Assembly: GCF_002844195.1 (NCBI RefSeq)
Contig: NZ_PEND01000012.1
Location: 1-64,000, forward strand
DNA: 64,000 nucleotides
Direction: 5' to 3'
Source of the DNA: Halegenticoccus soli
GTDB taxonomy: Archaea > Halobacteriota > Halobacteria > Halobacteriales > Haloferacaceae
The notes under the pieces were generated by a model, which saw only the letters and a program-made list of their open reading frames with translations, was not told the DNA's origin and searched no databases. Positions 7,296 through 20,867 of this stretch are shown piece after piece. Every line of letters begins with the position of its first letter. Position 1 is the stretch's first letter. Made by a program: the position numbers and the translations under genes.

Positions 7296-9107
7296 ATGCC
7301 CGGAATCGCTGGGAGTTCATCGGACGACGGCGACGTTTCCGCCATGCTGGAGTCGCTGACGCACGAGCCGTGGTACGAGACGGAGCGAGTTTCGGTCGGA
7401 GACGCCGGACTCGGCCTGGCTCACCACGGCGAGCGGGACGCCGCGAGCGACCTGTGGTGGGAGGGCGATGGGATCGTCGGCGTCCTCCACGGCATCGTCT
7501 CCTCGGCCCCCCGATCGATATCGGACCCGGGGGAGTTCTTCGCCGCGGTGCTCGATCGCCCCGCCGACGCGCTCGCGGAGATCGACGGCCTCTTCAGCCT
7601 CGCCTGCGCGGACCGATCGGGGCGGATCGTTCTCGCGACCGACAAGCTCGGAACCCGGCCGTGTTACTACCGCGACGTGGACGGCCGATCCGGCGCGCCC
7701 TTCTCCTTCTCGTCCGAGCTGTCGGCGCTCGCTCCGCGCCTCGACGACCCCGAGCTCGATCCGCGGGCGCTGAGCGACATGGTCTTCCTCGGGTACCCCT
7801 GGGGCGAGACGACGCTGCTCGCGGGCGTGTCGGAGCTCCGACCGGCGCGAGTGCTGACGCACGAGAACGGCGAGACGACTGTCGAACGGTACTGGCGGCC
7901 GGCGTTCGGCGACGGAACCGGCGACGAGGACGAGTACCCGCGGCGGCTCCTGCGGGCGTACCGTAACTCGGTCCGCGAGGCGGCGGCCACGGTCGACGGT
8001 CGGACCGGCCTCTGGCTCTCCGGCGGCCTCGACAGCCGGATGATGGCGTCCGCCCTCCGCGACGAGTTCGACTCGTTCCTGACCATGACGTACGACATCC
8101 CCGGCGAGGACGAGTCCGGACCGGCGCGCCGCGTCGCGGAGACCCTCGGCGTCGAGAACGAGCGGATCGAACTCGGCCCGCCGTCCGCGTTCACGAACGT
8201 CCTGGACAGGGCGATCCGGCTGACCGACGGGATGCTCGCCTGGTCGTATCTGATCAACACCGCCTACATGCTCGACGGCCGCCTGCGCGGCGCGGCGGAC
8301 GTCGTCTTCGAGGCCGCGCCGCAGGAGATCTACCTGGGCGAGGATCTCTGGTCGCACCGCCGGCGGACGATCCGCCGGGGGGACGTCGCCGGCGCGCTGG
8401 CCGGGAGACACGCGGCGGTCGACGCCGACGCGGCCGCCGCCGTGGTGAACGGCGCGGTCGATCCGATGGACTCGATCCGCGAGGAGGTCGCGATCAACGC
8501 GGGGCCGACCCGGGAGGCGACCTTCCGCGACGTCGTCTGGCAGCGGGCGGCCTACTCGCACTTCCGCAGCAGCCGGATTCCGCGCAGTCAGGTCGGAACC
8601 AGGGTGCCCTTCGCGGCCAGCGGGTTCCTCGATCTGGCCGCGGATCGGCCGCCGCGGTACCACAAGCAGACCGTGCCGTACACCGGCGGGCGGGTCTCCC
8701 TCGCGACGACGCGGCTGAAGCTCGAAATGACGCGGATGATGAGCGGCGGCCTCGATCGGATTCCGTACCAGCGGACGGGGTTCCCGCCGACCGCCCCGCA
8801 GTGGCTTCACACCGTCGGGATGGCGGGCAAACGCATCCGCAAGCGGCTGCGCGGACCGAAGCTGTACGCCGAGTGGTACCGGACGGACCCGACGCTGCGG
8901 GCGTACCTCGACGGTCTCCTCGACGACGCGGCCGACCGGTCGCACTTCGACGCGGGGGAGATCGAGCGGCTCCGGTCGGAGCACCTGGACGGCGCGCACA
9001 ACCACATCAAGACCATCGCCGCGATCACGTCGGTCGAACGGTGGACCCAACAGCACCTCGGTCGGACGGCGGAGGTGGCGGCGCCCCCGTTGACCGGTTC
9101 GTCATGA
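7296..9107 (+). CDS. Asparagine-synthetase-like protein without the glutaminase Cys
   Basis: A 603-residue protein with an N-terminal Ntn/GATase-II-like half and a C-terminal ATP-pyrophosphatase half whose PP-loop is LSGGLDSRMM near residue 245. Active glutamine amidotransferases of this family begin Met-Cys-Gly. Here the N-terminus is MPGIAG, so the catalytic Cys is replaced by Pro and glutamine hydrolysis is not expected. It would adenylate a carboxylate and couple it to an amine or ammonia. The start at 7296 was chosen because the upstream ATG lies within the promoter motif. The stop overlaps the next gene's ATG (ATGA), implying coupled translation with the formyltransferase. Amidation of a uronic acid or an aminoacyl group is inferred. 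Confidence 0.8.
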   Translation: MPGIAGSSSDDGDVSAMLESLTHEPWYETERVSVGDAGLGLAHHGERDAASDLWWEGDGIVGVLHGIVSSAPRSISDPGEFFAAVLDRPADALAEIDGLFSLACADRSGRIVLATDKLGTRPCYYRDVDGRSGAPFSFSSELSALAPRLDDPELDPRALSDMVFLGYPWGETTLLAGVSELRPARVLTHENGETTVERYWRPAFGDGTGDEDEYPRRLLRAYRNSVREAAATVDGRTGLWLSGGLDSRMMASALRDEFDSFLTMTYDIPGEDESGPARRVAETLGVENERIELGPPSAFTNVLDRAIRLTDGMLAWSYLINTAYMLDGRLRGAADVVFEAAPQEIYLGEDLWSHRRRTIRRGDVAGALAGRHAAVDADAAAAVVNGAVDPMDSIREEVAINAGPTREATFRDVVWQRAAYSHFRSSRIPRSQVGTRVPFAASGFLDLAADRPPRYHKQTVPYTGGRVSLATTRLKLEMTRMMSGGLDRIPYQRTGFPPTAPQWLHTVGMAGKRIRKRLRGPKLYAEWYRTDPTLRAYLDGLLDDAADRSHFDAGEIERLRSEHLDGAHNHIKTIAAITSVERWTQQHLGRTAEVAAPPLTGSS

Positions 9108-10990: not shown

Positions 10991-12793
10991 TCAGTAGACG
11001 AGTTCGCCGGTCGAGAGCGCGACGACGGTGTACAGGCGGGCGAGCTCCGCGTCGCTGTACGACGCCTCGCTATCGAGAACCGCCTCGACCCCGTCCGGGT
11101 CGAGCGACGTTTCCTCGGCGGAAAGGAGCGATCTCACCGACTCCGGATCCCGCAGCTCGTCGCGCCGCCCGCTCCGGCGGCGTCTGAGCTGCGACACCAC
11201 CGTGCGCTTGACCGAGGGAAACCGGGACAGCCCGTCGTAGAGCCGGTGTTTGAGCCGGTACTCCACCGACGAGAGCGACGCGCCGAAGTTCGCGTACTCG
11301 ATGTCCGCCACCGCCGGCGACAGCGCCCCGAGGAACTCGCGGTACAACCCCCGGCGCGCCTTCTGCTCCGGCGGGCAGTTCATCGCGTACTCGAACACCG
11401 GCCGGGCGTAGAACGGCGAGAGGCTGGGGAAGTAGTACCGGTTCCGGTCCTCCCCGTGCGTGAGCCAGTTCATCCCCCGCTCGCGGATCAGGAAGTGGAC
11501 GTGTTTCGCGTCGAGGTCGTCCTCGGGGTACGAGCCGATCCGCTCGCGGACCGACTCCACGAGCCGTTTCTCGTCGATTCCGGCGACGCGGGCGGCGTCC
11601 TCCGGCGGGAAGATGCCGTTCGTCTCCACGATGTGCCGGACCAGCGTCCGCTCGGTCGAGAGCGGTCGGCCCGCGGTGAGGTCGGCGAGCACCTTGTCGC
11701 CGCCGTCGCCGGTGAGGTACGTGACGCATCCGTAGTCCGCTCGAACCCGCTCGAAGAAGTCGAGGATGAACGCCATCTCCAGGTAGTTCGTCCCCTGCTT
11801 CATGTCCAAGAGCAGCGCACGCGCCTCGGGCGAGTCGGACACCGCGTACCGCCGCCACGGGATGTCGAGCGCCCGGGCGACCGACGCGGCGATCGCCGCG
11901 TCGTCGTCCAGCCCGACCGCGGCCGACCCCCCGTCCGCGGCCGCTGTCGCCTCGTCGCCGGTCACCCGCTGGAAGGTGGCGGCGACCGCCGGAAGTTCGG
12001 CCCGAGCGAACCCCGCCGCGACCGCGCGCGAGTCGAGGCCGCCGCTGAGCGAGATGACGTTCGGCCCCGCGACCTCGGAGCGTCGTCGGCACGCGTCGAC
12101 GAAGCGCGACGCGAGCGCCTCGGCGTTCTCCGCGGGCGTCCGATCGGCGTGTTCGTTCCCCTCGAAGCGGTGCCGGTGGAGCCAAGTCGCTTCCGCGCCG
12201 TCGCGGAGGTCGACCCGCGCGCCCGGCGGCACCTGCTCTACGCCCTCGAACGGCGTCCGCGTCCCGAGGGAGTAGCCGAACAGCAACTGCTGGCCTATCG
12301 CGACGCGGTCCAGTTCGAGCGGCGCTCCGAGGCGGTCTGCGAGGTGCCGGACGAACTTCAGCTCGCGGGAGACGATCGTCGTCCCGCCGACGGTCGCACA
12401 GTACGCCGGGAACCGCCCCAGCGCGTCGGAGAGGACGGTCACGTCGCCCGTGTCGCCGTCGACGACGGCCAGGAGGAACTCCCTGTCGCCCGTTCGGAGC
12501 CACTCGCGGACGGCCGCGTCGTCGCCTGCCCGGAGCGATCGGACGACCGATCGGATCTCCCCTTCGACGTCCGCGGCGTCGTGGAGATACCCCTCGAGAA
12601 ACGCCGCCCACCCGTCTCCGTCGACGCGCCTGATCGGGTACGAATCGTACCCCGTGTGTGCGACCACCGTGCCCGACGCCCGGAGGTGGTCGTAGGCGCT
12701 GTATACGTCAGTGAACCGAACGGCGTCGAGCGATTCGGAAATTCCGCCCGCACCGACGGTATCGGCTCCCTGAACGATGCTGAGGCCAGGCAT
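10991..12793 (-). CDS. Second asparagine-synthetase-like protein without the glutaminase Cys
   Basis: A 600-residue protein with the same two-domain layout as the 7296 gene product: a degenerate Ntn-like N-terminal half and a PP-loop half with ISLSGGLDSRAVA near residue 248 and TGDGGDKV further on. It begins MPGLSI, so the nucleophilic Cys is again Pro. Sequence between the PP-loops is quite different from its neighbour, so the two are paralogues with different substrates. The start ATG at 12793 is preceded by a GTAACAA variant only 17 bases upstream and by an AT-rich stretch further up, so its promoter is not settled. It converges with the LpxD-like gene. Confidence 0.8.
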   Translation of the reverse strand: MPGLSIVQGADTVGAGGISESLDAVRFTDVYSAYDHLRASGTVVAHTGYDSYPIRRVDGDGWAAFLEGYLHDAADVEGEIRSVVRSLRAGDDAAVREWLRTGDREFLLAVVDGDTGDVTVLSDALGRFPAYCATVGGTTIVSRELKFVRHLADRLGAPLELDRVAIGQQLLFGYSLGTRTPFEGVEQVPPGARVDLRDGAEATWLHRHRFEGNEHADRTPAENAEALASRFVDACRRRSEVAGPNVISLSGGLDSRAVAAGFARAELPAVAATFQRVTGDEATAAADGGSAAVGLDDDAAIAASVARALDIPWRRYAVSDSPEARALLLDMKQGTNYLEMAFILDFFERVRADYGCVTYLTGDGGDKVLADLTAGRPLSTERTLVRHIVETNGIFPPEDAARVAGIDEKRLVESVRERIGSYPEDDLDAKHVHFLIRERGMNWLTHGEDRNRYYFPSLSPFYARPVFEYAMNCPPEQKARRGLYREFLGALSPAVADIEYANFGASLSSVEYRLKHRLYDGLSRFPSVKRTVVSQLRRRRSGRRDELRDPESVRSLLSAEETSLDPDGVEAVLDSEASYSDAELARLYTVVALSTGELVY

Positions 12794-12887
12794 AACCGGG
12801 AGTTTGTTACGGACTACTAAAGTTAATCAGCGCGTTCAGATCGCTCCGGCGACTAGTCTGCGCCTTCCGCGGCGGCGCAGTCTGACC

Positions 12888-12894
12888 ATAACAA
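12888..12894 (+). promoter_or_regulatory. ATAACAATGG motif upstream of the tRNA-like gene
   Basis: CCATAACAATGGC. Its first A is 45 bases before the tRNA-like 5' end. If transcription starts about 33-36 bases after the first A, as at the coding genes, a short 5' leader of roughly 10 bases would result. Confidence 0.55.
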
Positions 12895-12932
12895 TGGCTC
12901 GACCGCTCCGACTGTCGGGTGCGGTCGCTGGA

Positions 12933-13016
12933 GGAAGGGTCGCTCAGTGGCAGAGCACCATCGGTTCTCCGGTGGGGGCCGTCAGGCCTCGCGTGGTTCG
13001 AATCCCGCCCCTTCCG
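12933..13016 (+). tRNA. tRNA-like RNA gene with long variable arm, isotype unassigned
   Basis: The acceptor stem is a perfect 7 bp (GGAAGGG at 12933-12939 with CCCTTCC at 13009-13015) plus a G discriminator. The D arm is GCTC-loop-GAGC (12942-12956). The variable arm forms GGGCC/GGCCT around GTCA, as in class II (Ser/Leu) tRNAs. The T loop TTCGAAT is canonical, but its stem pairs only with one bulged T. The anticodon arm is wrong for decoding: CCATC/GGTGG closes an 8-base loop, and these loop bases can pair further to give 7 bp with a 4-base loop. CCA is not encoded. The 3' half overlaps the end of the convergent glycosyltransferase gene. It may be a non-decoding tRNA-like RNA, a decayed tRNA, or a tRNA needing special processing. 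Confidence 0.6.
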
Positions 13017-18085: not shown

Positions 18086-19713
18086 CAGAGGTACCCGAGG
18101 TCCTCCAGTCGTTCGGTCACCTCCCCGTCGTCGGTTCCCTTTCGCTCCGCCGTGCCGAACTCGACGTCGGGGTACTCGCGGGTTCGAACCGGCACGGAGA
18201 GCAGGTCGGGCGGGACGCGTCCGGTCATGCGCGTCGGCACCGGCTTGCCGAGCAGGGACATGCAGATCGGCGCGACGTCGGTGAGCGACAGCGTCTCCGG
18301 CGCGGCGCCTCCGAAGTCCGGACCGGCGCCGACGAAGACGCCCTCGCGCTTGTGGTCGTGGGTGTCGACGGAGAGGAACCGCCTGCCGTACAGCGAGATC
18401 GCGATCTGGTTGTCCATCCCCCGCGGGAGGAACAGCACGTCGTCGGCGTCCTCGAGGTACGGGCCGTCGTACACCTCCTCGCGCCGCTTCACGAACTCGA
18501 ACGCCGGTTTCCCGTCCGGCGTTTCGAGTCCCGACAGGAGCTCGATGATCTCGTCGCGGACCGCCTCATACTCGGACTGGGGAACGACGCCGTGCGGTTC
18601 GCGCCCCTCGAGGTTCACCCGGACGCCGAGCCGGGCGCTGCTTCGGCAGTAAGCCCTCGACTTGCGCCAGTCCACGCTCTCGCCGGTCGCGCCGCGGACG
18701 GCGGCCGGCGTCACGGCCAGGAGCGCGTCCTCGACGCCGAACCGGCGGGCGGTCGCGTACACGTCGGCCGGGGAGACGCCGATCCGATCGAGCGCCATCC
18801 CGGCGCGCGTCAGCGCCCGCGACAGCGCGCTGTCGCCGTCCCGTTTCCCGTCCGACGTCAGGTCGGACTTCACGGCGTCGAGCGTCGGGCGCGATCCCTC
18901 GCTCGTCGTCTCCACGTAGCCGCGGCGCTTCAGCACCTCGTTGACGTAGATCCGGTGTCCCCGCGTCGGGCCGATCCCGTGGTCGGAGCAGACGACGACG
19001 TTGGCGTCCTCTCCGACCGCGTCGCGGACGTCTCCGACGAGCTCGTCCGCGGCGGCGTACACCTTCCGGAACGCCTCGGCTTTGCCGAAGTTGTGAAACA
19101 CCGCGTCCGTCTTCTGCACCTGGACGAACGCGAACTCCCAGTCGGCCGATTCGAGGAGCGCGAGCGCCGCGCGTCGACGCGCGTCGATGAGCTCGAGGTA
19201 GCCGGCGAGCTTTTCCTTCTTGTCGGCGGACGTTTCCGCCCGCGAGTAGATGCGGTACTCCTCGCCGATCGCTTCGGAGAGCTGCTCCCGGATCCCCTCG
19301 GGATAGCCGGGCGTGTCCTCGGTCGCGAGGTAGCCGGGCACCAGCGCGCCGTCGACCGGCTCCGCCGGGTGCGTCACCGGGACGTTCATCACCGCGACCC
19401 GCGATCCCTCGGCGTTCAAGTAGTTCCAGATCGCGGGGGCGTCGACGTCGTTCCGAGACACGACGCGCCCCTCGTCGGGGTAGTACTCGTAGTCGAAGAA
19501 GCTGTACACGCCGTGGTAGCTCGGATCGACCCCCGTGTACATCGAGGGCCAGGCGCTCCCGGTCCAGGGGGGAAACGTGGACCGGAGCGGCGCTTCGACG
19601 CCCGCTTCGCGGAGCGCCTGGAGGTTCGGCGTCGAGTCGGCGAACTGATCGAGGTAGCGGAAGTCGAGCGCGTCGAACCCGAGTACGACCGTCCGGTGGG
19701 TTTCGTCCGTCAT
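18085..19713 (-). CDS. Type I phosphodiesterase / nucleotide pyrophosphatase-like enzyme
   Basis: A 542-residue alkaline-phosphatase-superfamily enzyme. VVLGFDALDFRYL near residue 12, PPWTGSAWPSMYTGVDP (nucleophile region) and VVVCSDHGIGPTRGH hold the expected metal ligands. No signal peptide is seen. The ATG at 19713 overlaps the previous stop by one base (TGATG), and its stop overlaps the flippase ATG. It is similar to the 4343-5932 product. A role in hydrolysing or transferring a phosphate-linked group on the glycan or its lipid carrier is inferred from operon context. Confidence 0.8.
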   Translation of the reverse strand: MTDETHRTVVLGFDALDFRYLDQFADSTPNLQALREAGVEAPLRSTFPPWTGSAWPSMYTGVDPSYHGVYSFFDYEYYPDEGRVVSRNDVDAPAIWNYLNAEGSRVAVMNVPVTHPAEPVDGALVPGYLATEDTPGYPEGIREQLSEAIGEEYRIYSRAETSADKKEKLAGYLELIDARRRAALALLESADWEFAFVQVQKTDAVFHNFGKAEAFRKVYAAADELVGDVRDAVGEDANVVVCSDHGIGPTRGHRIYVNEVLKRRGYVETTSEGSRPTLDAVKSDLTSDGKRDGDSALSRALTRAGMALDRIGVSPADVYATARRFGVEDALLAVTPAAVRGATGESVDWRKSRAYCRSSARLGVRVNLEGREPHGVVPQSEYEAVRDEIIELLSGLETPDGKPAFEFVKRREEVYDGPYLEDADDVLFLPRGMDNQIAISLYGRRFLSVDTHDHKREGVFVGAGPDFGGAAPETLSLTDVAPICMSLLGKPVPTRMTGRVPPDLLSVPVRTREYPDVEFGTAERKGTDDGEVTERLEDLGYL

Positions 19714-20726
19714 CAGTGGTTGAGAAGGCTGTACGCTCTCTTCGCCACGTCCATGCCCCGACCGCCGGACTCGACGACGTAGTACGGGACGAGCTCGGCG
19801 CCGAACTTCGCCTTGTAGCGGCAGAGCCGCTCGGTGTTCGCGCCCATGAGGTCGTAGGCATGGACGGAGTCGATCGGCGGGTCGTCGACGATGTCTTCGA
19901 TGATACGCCAGTGGACCAGACTGTTGACGCTCGTCCCGTCGTACGTCGCCCTGGTGCCGCCCTGCCAGAAGTAGGCCACGTCGTTCGAGTAGAGGACGGT
20001 GATGCCGCTCAGGTGCTCTCCGTCCGGCGTCCGGGCGAGGTAGACGCGGCAGCGGTCCTCCTCGGCGAGCGACGCGGTGAGGTCGCGGACGTACGGCCAC
20101 TGGAGGCGGTACTGCTCGCCCTGTTCTTCGTACCGCGACTTCGCGTCGTCGTACACCACCCGCGCGCCCTCCTCGGGCGAGACGCGTTCGACGACGACGT
20201 CGGTCTCCCGCGCGTCCCTGATCTCCCGGCGCAGGCTCTTGCTGAAGGACGAGAGGAGGGCGTCGGGGGACGTCTCCGAGAGCGACAGCGCGTACGTGAA
20301 GAACGGATCGACGTCGAGATCCTGCCAGACGTAGGGACGGGGGTCGTCGTACGCCGTGCCGCACACCATCCGGAGGAGGCTGAGAGAGGAGTCGACCGCG
20401 AGCTCTTCGAGAACCAGCTCCGTGAACTCGCGGTTGACGCGCTCTCGCTTCCGCCGCTTGGGGCTCGGCGACATCAGAACGGGGCCGAGGCGCGGAACGC
20501 CCATCGCGGGCGGCGGCGACAGCACGGCGGTTCCGACGGACTGCCGTCGCAAAACCACGGGGAGGAGGGCAATCGGCTGCTCCCCCTTGAACCCGCCGTA
20601 CAGTCGGAGCTGCCCGGACGTGTACTCGTCGAGTACGTCCAGCGCCGCGGGCGTGTGAAACACCTCGAAACCGGACGACGGCAAGGCGTCTCCCCACGCT
20701 GCCAGATCAAGCTGCTCGACTCTCAT
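19713..20726 (-). CDS. FemAB/GNAT-like acyl- or aminoacyl-transferase
   Basis: A 337-residue protein of the FemAB-related GNAT fold (Acetyltransf_6/BioF2-like domain in about residues 150-300): FSKSLRREIRDARETDVVVE, HLSGITVLYSNDVAYFWQGGT and YDLMGANTERLCRYKAKFGAE follow the family pattern. Bacterial Fem relatives transfer amino acids from aminoacyl-tRNA to cell-wall precursors; others use acyl-CoA. ATG 20726 was chosen because it lies 37 bases after an ATAACAA motif. An earlier ATG at 20741 is only 22 bases after it. First gene of an operon with the phosphodiesterase and flippase. Confidence 0.8.
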   Translation of the reverse strand: MRVEQLDLAAWGDALPSSGFEVFHTPAALDVLDEYTSGQLRLYGGFKGEQPIALLPVVLRRQSVGTAVLSPPPAMGVPRLGPVLMSPSPKRRKRERVNREFTELVLEELAVDSSLSLLRMVCGTAYDDPRPYVWQDLDVDPFFTYALSLSETSPDALLSSFSKSLRREIRDARETDVVVERVSPEEGARVVYDDAKSRYEEQGEQYRLQWPYVRDLTASLAEEDRCRVYLARTPDGEHLSGITVLYSNDVAYFWQGGTRATYDGTSVNSLVHWRIIEDIVDDPPIDSVHAYDLMGANTERLCRYKAKFGAELVPYYVVESGGRGMDVAKRAYSLLNH

Positions 20727-20756
20727 TAGCGCACGTCTCAACAGGCGGTCGCCACT

Positions 20757-20763
20757 TTGTTAT
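20757..20763 (-). promoter_or_regulatory. ATAACAA motif for the FemAB-like operon
   Basis: GATAACAAAG on the minus strand. Its first A is 37 bases before ATG 20726. Confidence 0.6.
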
Positions 20764-20867
20764 CCACCCCTTACCCCCGAAATCCGCCCGACGAGGCCGT
20801 CTTCGGCTCGAATCGGCGAATCGGAAGCCGAGCGACGCGGAGACCGCACGGCGGTTCGGACGGGCGG

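What the first reader, a model, noticed from the sequence alone, without database searches (positions are those of the whole stretch)
12881..13016. tRNA-like gene with a non-decoding anticodon arm, under the same motif as the glycan genes
The acceptor stem, D arm, T loop and class II variable arm are recognisable, but the anticodon loop has 8 bases (or collapses to 4) and the T stem needs a bulge. It stands inside a glycan island, has an ATAACAATGG motif at the expected distance, and the island also codes for a FemAB-like transferase and a formyltransferase-fold protein. Known precedent: bacterial Fem and MurM enzymes use aminoacyl-tRNA, some from tRNAs not used in translation. A dedicated aminoacyl donor RNA for glycan decoration in archaea would be new. 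The link is inference.
Basis: partly seen in the sequence, partly recalled or inferred. Interest (0 to 1): 0.75.

Follow-up and report, generated by a model that had tools for sequence, protein, structure and literature searches.

The report
Anticodon-less tRNA-like RNA in haloarchaea
This salt-loving archaeon carries a small RNA that folds like a transfer RNA but has no anticodon; the same RNA is conserved in about half of sampled haloarchaea, and one branch of it sits behind the promoter motif used by surface-sugar genes, so it probably does a tRNA-like job outside protein synthesis.

Summary
Window 12933-13016 is a tRNA-like gene (Rfam tRNA 36.8 bits; ARAGORN finds no anticodon). It belongs to a family found in 188 of 394 sampled Halobacteriales genomes (47 of 96 genera), not seen elsewhere. 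In 129 distinct members the acceptor stem, D arm, T loop and tertiary-contact bases are nearly fixed. The anticodon arm is replaced by a variable hairpin with compensatory changes; 128 of 129 lack a canonical loop. All 129 T stems keep a one-base bulge. This is a maintained RNA that should not decode. Two branches exist: class B beside sdhCDBA with an ordinary TATA box, and class A (this one) with a tRNA-Ser-like variable arm, usually G73, and in 19 of 34 non-Natrialbaceae members the motif CATAACAAWG upstream. That motif marks surface-glycan genes: 14 sites in the window against 0.31 expected. The island encodes a protein whose only clear solved relative is FemX. A serine donor for glycan decoration is plausible, but charging is untested, class B has no glycan link, and the discriminator varies. 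Function is inferred; existence and conservation are shown.

The parts
12887..12896 (+). CATAACAATG promoter-like element shared with glycan-island genes, 36 nt before the RNA
   Evidence: 14 sites in window vs 0.31 expected; same element before class A RNAs in other genera; family-wide A+T peak 27-35 nt upstream of the RNA
12933..13016 (+). tRNA-like RNA gene, class A, 84 nt, ends with discriminator G; no CCA encoded
   Evidence: 86-89% identical full-length relatives
12933..12939 (+). acceptor stem 5' strand GGAAGGG (pairs with 13009-13015)
   Evidence: invariant in 39 diverse aligned members
12942..12956 (+). D arm GCTC-AGTGGCA-GAGC
   Evidence: conserved
12958..12975 (+). hairpin CCATCGG-TTCT-CCGGTGG replacing the anticodon arm
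   Evidence: fold; compensatory changes in relatives; canonical 5 bp + 7 nt arm with U33 in 1 of 129
12976..12989 (+). variable arm GGGCC-GTCA-GGCCT; the string GGCCGTCAGGCCTC is identical to the arm of some haloarchaeal tRNA-Ser(UGA)
12991..13008 (+). T arm GCG-U-GG / TTCGAAT / CCCGC with bulged U at 12994
   Evidence: bulge in 129 of 129 members
13009..13016 (+). acceptor stem 3' strand CCCTTCC and discriminator G73
19713..20726 (-). FemAB/FemX-like GNAT-fold transferase in the same island, own copy of the motif upstream (candidate user of the RNA; link inferred)
   Evidence: Pfam PF13480 1e-20, PF02388 1e-4 below cut-off; profile of 7 homologues hits FemX 6snr, E 1.9e-4; motif 20755-20764
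10991..12793 (-). asparagine-synthase-like protein, upstream neighbour of the RNA (context only)
   Evidence: PF00733
12982..13953 (-). family-4 glycosyltransferase, downstream neighbour; predicted 3' end overlaps the RNA antisense by 35 nt (context only)

Best explanation
The locus encodes a member of a haloarchaeal family of stand-alone tRNA-like RNAs that keep the full L-shape but have given up decoding: no anticodon loop, and a bulged T stem that should weaken binding by elongation factor aEF1A. Shown: family, conservation, structure, promoter. Inferred: the class A branch, to which this copy belongs, is matured like a tRNA, charged with serine by the ordinary SerRS (which reads the variable arm and G73, not the anticodon), and kept out of translation. 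It then serves as amino-acid donor for a FemX-like ligase that decorates surface-glycan amino sugars, being switched on with the glycan genes through the shared CATAACAAWG promoter element.
For: Family in 188/394 genomes and 47/96 genera, reversed-pattern control almost empty. Acceptor invariant across the diverse alignment; T-stem and hairpin pairs change in a compensatory way. T-stem bulge 129/129 against 80/83 normal T stems in ordinary haloarchaeal tRNAs; bulge kept while moving GCGUGG to GUGGCG. EF-Tu reads T-stem pairs 49-65 and 51-63, and S. aureus non-proteinogenic tRNA-Gly are thought to escape through changes there (PMC4052509). No decoding loop in 128/129. Short members' variable arms closer to tRNA-Ser than tRNA-Leu 69/69; serine identity rests on the variable arm and G73 and is anticodon independent (PMC9976931). 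One canonical SerRS per genome. Motif: 14 vs 0.31 expected in window; before 19/34 class A RNAs outside Natrialbaceae, 0/62 of the rest outside Natrialbaceae, shuffles 0.07; 1.94 per 10 kb in RNA-bearing islands vs 0.03 in sdh loci; 11 of 24 own-genome sites on the 70-kb contig of the window. FemX the only significant PDB relative of the linked transferase; FemX of Weissella needs G2-C71 (PMC4052509), which this RNA has.
Against: No expression or charging data. Class B at the sdh locus lacks the motif and often the variable arm, and A73 or C73 occurs in 42/129. The D arm is not tRNA-Ser-like. FemAB-like genes are in 23/29 RNA+ and 9/29 RNA- genomes, but genome size confounds this and six RNA+ genomes lack them. 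Glycan islands may simply settle at tRNA-like loci. Natrialbaceae RNAs carry only a related element (GATTACAAAT). T-stem and SerRS effects are extrapolated from other organisms.
Confidence: 0.42

Rival explanations
1. An uncharged tRNA-mimic regulator: the conserved elbow and acceptor bind a tRNA-handling protein (RNase P, tRNase Z, CCA enzyme, SerRS, TGT or a dedicated protein), and the RNA acts as a sponge, sensor or scaffold; class A is co-expressed with glycan genes as their regulator.
For: Acceptor, D and T elements fixed while discriminator, variable arm and hairpin drift. Precedent: B. cereus tRNAOther, poorly charged, off polysomes, changes cell-wall traits (PMC3399842).
Against: The retained Ser-like arm with mostly G73 in class A is not needed for a sponge; no conserved single-stranded seed in the hairpin loops.
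Confidence: 0.36
2. The two branches differ: class A is a seryl donor in the glycan regulon, while class B at sdh has another charge (Leu-like arm and A73 in Haloarcula) or another job.
For: Haloarcula class B has CCC-GCAAA-GGG-CUCC with A73, scoring nearer tRNA-Leu; different promoters.
Against: A73 occurs also with no arm or CUUC arms; G73 is found in Haloferax and most Halorientalis class B; the pattern follows phylogeny.
Confidence: 0.12
3. A tRNA locus decayed and kept only as an integration site for islands.
For: 3'-tail-only repeats follow several copies; islands border some copies.
Against: Own promoter, compensatory changes, bulge in 129/129, vertical synteny at sdh, glmS and dinG loci.
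Confidence: 0.04
4. A genuine tRNA whose anticodon arm is restored by splicing a small intron.
For: Archaeal tRNA introns sit in this arm (general knowledge) and lengths vary (79-117 nt, one 169).
Against: Hairpins end in 3-6 nt loops in most members, short members have no room for an intron plus a 7-nt loop, no bulge-helix-bulge pattern seen in the folds; all T stems bulged.
Confidence: 0.03

Closest known systems
Bacillus cereus pseudo-tRNA tRNAOther (PMC3399842)
   Same: tRNA-like gene not used in translation, beside an island, linked to the cell surface
   Different: It has a Trp anticodon and is part of a larger regulatory RNA in some Bacilli; here the anticodon loop is gone and conservation spans an archaeal order
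Staphylococcus aureus non-proteinogenic tRNA-Gly used by FemXAB (PMC4052509)
   Same: T-stem features predicted to weaken elongation-factor binding; donor for FemX-type ligases
   Different: Those are Gly isoacceptors with altered D-loop GG; here GG is kept, the anticodon is absent, and the T stem carries a bulge
tRNA-Ser / tRNA-Sec (class II, SerRS-charged)
   Same: long variable arm of the same geometry as haloarchaeal tRNA-Ser(UGA), G73 in most class A
   Different: no anticodon, class-I type D arm, bulged T stem
tmRNA tRNA-like domain
   Same: acceptor and T arm without an anticodon loop, processed like tRNA (general knowledge)
   Different: no tag-peptide reading frame, a regular D arm, single short RNA, archaeal

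Membership tests
tRNA (Rfam RF00005) | cloverleaf with acceptor, D and T arms above family cut-off | tested here: met
   36.8 bits vs 29
tRNA (Rfam RF00005) | anticodon arm of 5 bp and 7-nt loop with U33 | tested here: not met
   window not; 1 of 129 relatives
tRNA (Rfam RF00005) | continuous 5-bp T stem | tested here: not met
   0 of 129
tRNA-Ser | G73 and long variable arm of tRNA-Ser type | tested here: met
   window and 69/69 short members nearer Ser than Leu; a few short members have A73
tRNA-Ser | charged with serine | not testable with these tools
   needs acid gel or in vitro assay
non-translational aminoacyl-tRNA donors (FemX type) | features weakening elongation-factor binding | tested here: inconclusive
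   T-stem bulge conserved; binding not measured
non-translational aminoacyl-tRNA donors (FemX type) | a FemX-type ligase linked to the RNA | tested here: inconclusive
   FemX-like gene near class A copies in islands but not in all genomes with the RNA
tRNA pseudogene | relaxed constraint, intact paralogue as source | tested here: not met
   compensatory changes; own genome holds only family members and ordinary tRNAs
tRNA-dependent MprF, CDPS or LanB pathways | the enzyme family is present | tested here: inconclusive
   PF09924 absent in 41 genomes with a working control; PF16715 and PF04738 no hits but controls silent

The most novel reading that the evidence does not exclude
Haloarchaea own a dedicated, anticodon-free aminoacyl carrier RNA: charged by an ordinary synthetase, shut out of the ribosome by a T-stem bulge, and transcribed with surface-glycan genes to feed tRNA-dependent sugar decoration. 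It would be the first such RNA in archaea and, as far as I know, the first tRNA family that lost decoding altogether while staying chargeable.
Probability: 0.35. Interest if true: 0.95.

Novelty: new variant of a known kind. Interest (0 to 1): 0.82.

Why it matters
An order-wide, maintained tRNA-like RNA without an anticodon was found in genera that include well-studied ones (Haloferax, Haloarcula, Natrinema), and no description turned up in the held literature or, beyond the general tRNA model, in Rfam. If charged, it opens tRNA-dependent glycan chemistry in archaea; if not, it is a new class of archaeal tRNA-mimic regulator. Either way it is testable in hosts with existing genetics. It also exposes a shared promoter element for haloarchaeal glycan genes.

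Tried and rejected
Common protein partner at the locus: rejected; neighbours are sdhCDBA, glmS, a DinG-like helicase or glycan genes depending on family. Duplicate SerRS as dedicated charger: none in 38 genomes. MprF-type lipid aminoacylation: absent. Phage or virus origin: no exact hits in viral contigs, only short tRNA matches in phages. FemAB presence as strict partner: association 23/29 vs 9/29, p 0.0005, but not significant in two of three size-matched ranges. Single-sequence AlphaFold of the FemX-like protein: pLDDT 42, not used. mRNA 3'-end processing element for sdh: unlikely because class A copies are convergent or divergent to neighbours and have their own promoter. Divergent copies in RNA-negative genomes: covariance search gave two clear and three borderline extra members; Halorubrum-type genomes keep sdhA and the downstream gene without the RNA. 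Other Rfam matches near the locus (mir-4018, Guanidine-II, ceN58) are far below cut-off.

Full report
1. What is there. Window 12933-13016 (+) reads GGAAGGG TC GCTC-AGTGGCA-GAGC A CCATCGG-TTCT-CCGGTGG GGGCC-GTCA-GGCCT C GCG-U-GG-TTCGAAT-CCCGC CCCTTCC G. ARAGORN calls it a tRNA with no identifiable anticodon and Rfam's tRNA model matches it above the gathering score. All stated irregularities are real: the anticodon arm is a 7-bp hairpin with a 4-nt loop (or 5 bp with 8 nt), and the T stem needs a bulged U.

2. It is a family. The own genome has two more copies. A pattern from the acceptor and D arm finds it in 188 of 394 Halobacteriales genomes and 47 of 96 genera, while the reversed pattern is almost silent. 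Named hits include Haloferax, Haloarcula, Halobellus, Natrinema, Natrialba, Halorussus, Haladaptatus; every listed hit in 84,980 species' genomes was haloarchaeal or a MAG contig that also appears within this order, though the scan stopped at 100 stretches. A covariance model separates family members (52-89 bits, including borderline ones) from ordinary tRNA-Ser/Ala (up to 51 bits) and finds none outside the class in a phylum sample. It is missing in whole lineages, for example every sampled genome of one large genus (g14, Halorubrum-type), where sdhA and its usual downstream gene remain without the RNA.

3. It is maintained. In 39 diverse sequences the acceptor stem never varies and the bases for tertiary contacts (U8, A14, G15, G18, G19, C48, T54, T55, C56, A58 in tRNA numbering) are invariant. 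Because most members were found with the acceptor and D-arm sequence, that invariance is partly selected for, but the covariance search of pattern-negative genomes found almost no other acceptor. The hairpin that replaces the anticodon arm shows compensatory changes (Natrialbaceae pair 34-41 CG/UA/GC; Halorussus-type group, four hairpin pairs and one T-stem pair changed on both sides; 0/500 shuffles reach the covariation score). In 129 distinct sequences all T stems have a one-base bulge and none is continuous, while 80 of 83 ordinary haloarchaeal tRNAs are continuous; in Natrialbaceae the stem changed from GCG-U-GG/CCCGC to GUGG-C-G/CCCAC, keeping a bulge at a new place. Only one of 129 has a canonical 5+7 anticodon arm with U33. 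An A+T peak at -35 to -27 marks a core promoter.

4. Two branches. Class B (for example Haloferax, Haloarcula, Halobellus) lies 3' of sdhCDBA on the same strand (19 loci) with ordinary TATA boxes, long hairpins and A73 or G73. Class A includes this copy, a Halorussus/Haladaptatus group beside glmS, Natrialbaceae beside a DinG-like helicase, and extra copies in glycan islands or on plasmids. The own genome has one class B and two class A copies. Class A arms are of tRNA-Ser type: 69 of 69 short members are nearer to tRNA-Ser than tRNA-Leu, and the window string GGCCGTCAGGCCTC equals that of tRNA-Ser(UGA) in relatives. Class A members have G73 with few exceptions.

5. The glycan link. CATAACAAWG (one mismatch) occurs 14 times in the window, expected 0.31, nearly all before glycan genes and once 36 nt before the RNA. 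Exact ATAACAAWG occurs 24 times in the own genome against 4 for the reversed pattern, 11 of them on this 70-kb contig; in four other genomes the sites also cluster around the RNA-bearing island. Density is 1.94 per 10 kb in RNA-bearing islands, 1.5-2.5 in some glycan loci without the RNA, and 0.03 in 19 sdh loci. The motif precedes 19 of 34 class A RNAs outside Natrialbaceae, including some that are not in an island (L073, Halorussus), and none of the 62 others outside Natrialbaceae; Natrialbaceae have a related GATTACAAAT at the same distance. So class A RNA looks like a member of a glycan regulon; whether the element is a TATA variant or an activator site is unknown.

6. Possible user. The island holds a FemAB-like protein (19713-20726, -); homologues occur near class A copies in several genomes (cluster 15). 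A profile of seven hits FemX (6snr) as the only significant solved relative, collinearly. FemX enzymes take amino acids from aminoacyl-tRNA, and one requires G2-C71 (PMC4052509), which this RNA has. The island makes amino and uronic sugars (nucleotide-sugar dehydrogenase, 3-dehydrogenase, aminotransferase), plausible acceptors.

7. Mechanism and confidence. Shown: family, fold, constraint, promoter, motif sharing of class A with glycan genes. Inferred: processing at both ends, serine charging (serine identity is anticodon independent and rests on the variable arm and G73, PMC9976931), exclusion from translation by the bulge (by analogy with T-stem recognition by EF-Tu, PMC4052509), donation to a FemX-like ligase. 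I give the full chain 0.42. The main rival is an uncharged tRNA mimic (0.36), favoured by the drifting discriminator and the sdh branch.

8. Novelty. Non-translational tRNAs and pseudo-tRNAs are known in bacteria (PMC3399842, PMC4052509). A clade-conserved archaeal tRNA-like RNA without an anticodon loop was not found in the held literature; that library is partial. I file it as a new variant of a known kind, with a real chance that it is categorically new.

Noticed in passing
window 2434-28224 and islands in L069, L071, L083, L105, L106: CATAACAAWG behaves as a promoter element of haloarchaeal surface-glycan genes across several families, also before glmS in the Halorussus/Haladaptatus group.
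   Followed up: partly
L210 and L209 (about 1420-1590): A second tRNA-like type, GAAAGGG...CCCTTTCG with a 3-5 nt loop and no T bulge, sits a few nt before an extra tRNA-Gly(UCC); in L210 that tRNA-Gly itself has a bulged T stem.
   Followed up: partly
L073 10169 and 10290; L074 13254 and 13136; L087 9792 and 9645: Repeated 3'-tail-only copies (T loop plus acceptor 3' strand) at 100-250 nt spacing downstream of the RNA, several followed by a similar palindromic stretch; attachment-site-like or satellite.
   Followed up: partly
window 7344-9107 and 10991-12793: Two asparagine-synthase-like proteins in one glycan island, perhaps making sugar-acid amides.
   Followed up: no
L161: One Natrialbaceae member carries an insertion of about 80 nt in the variable arm yet keeps all other elements.
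   Followed up: no
L067, L088, L090 (plasmid pHOS100): Three class A copies lie within about 0.05-0.7 kb of an orc1/cdc6-type gene, two of them on replicons or contigs of about 112-121 kb (one a known plasmid).
   Followed up: no
window 12982-13016: The predicted 3' end of a glycosyltransferase gene overlaps the RNA antisense; in Halegenticoccus tardaugens (L069) the gene ends well before the RNA.
   Followed up: partly
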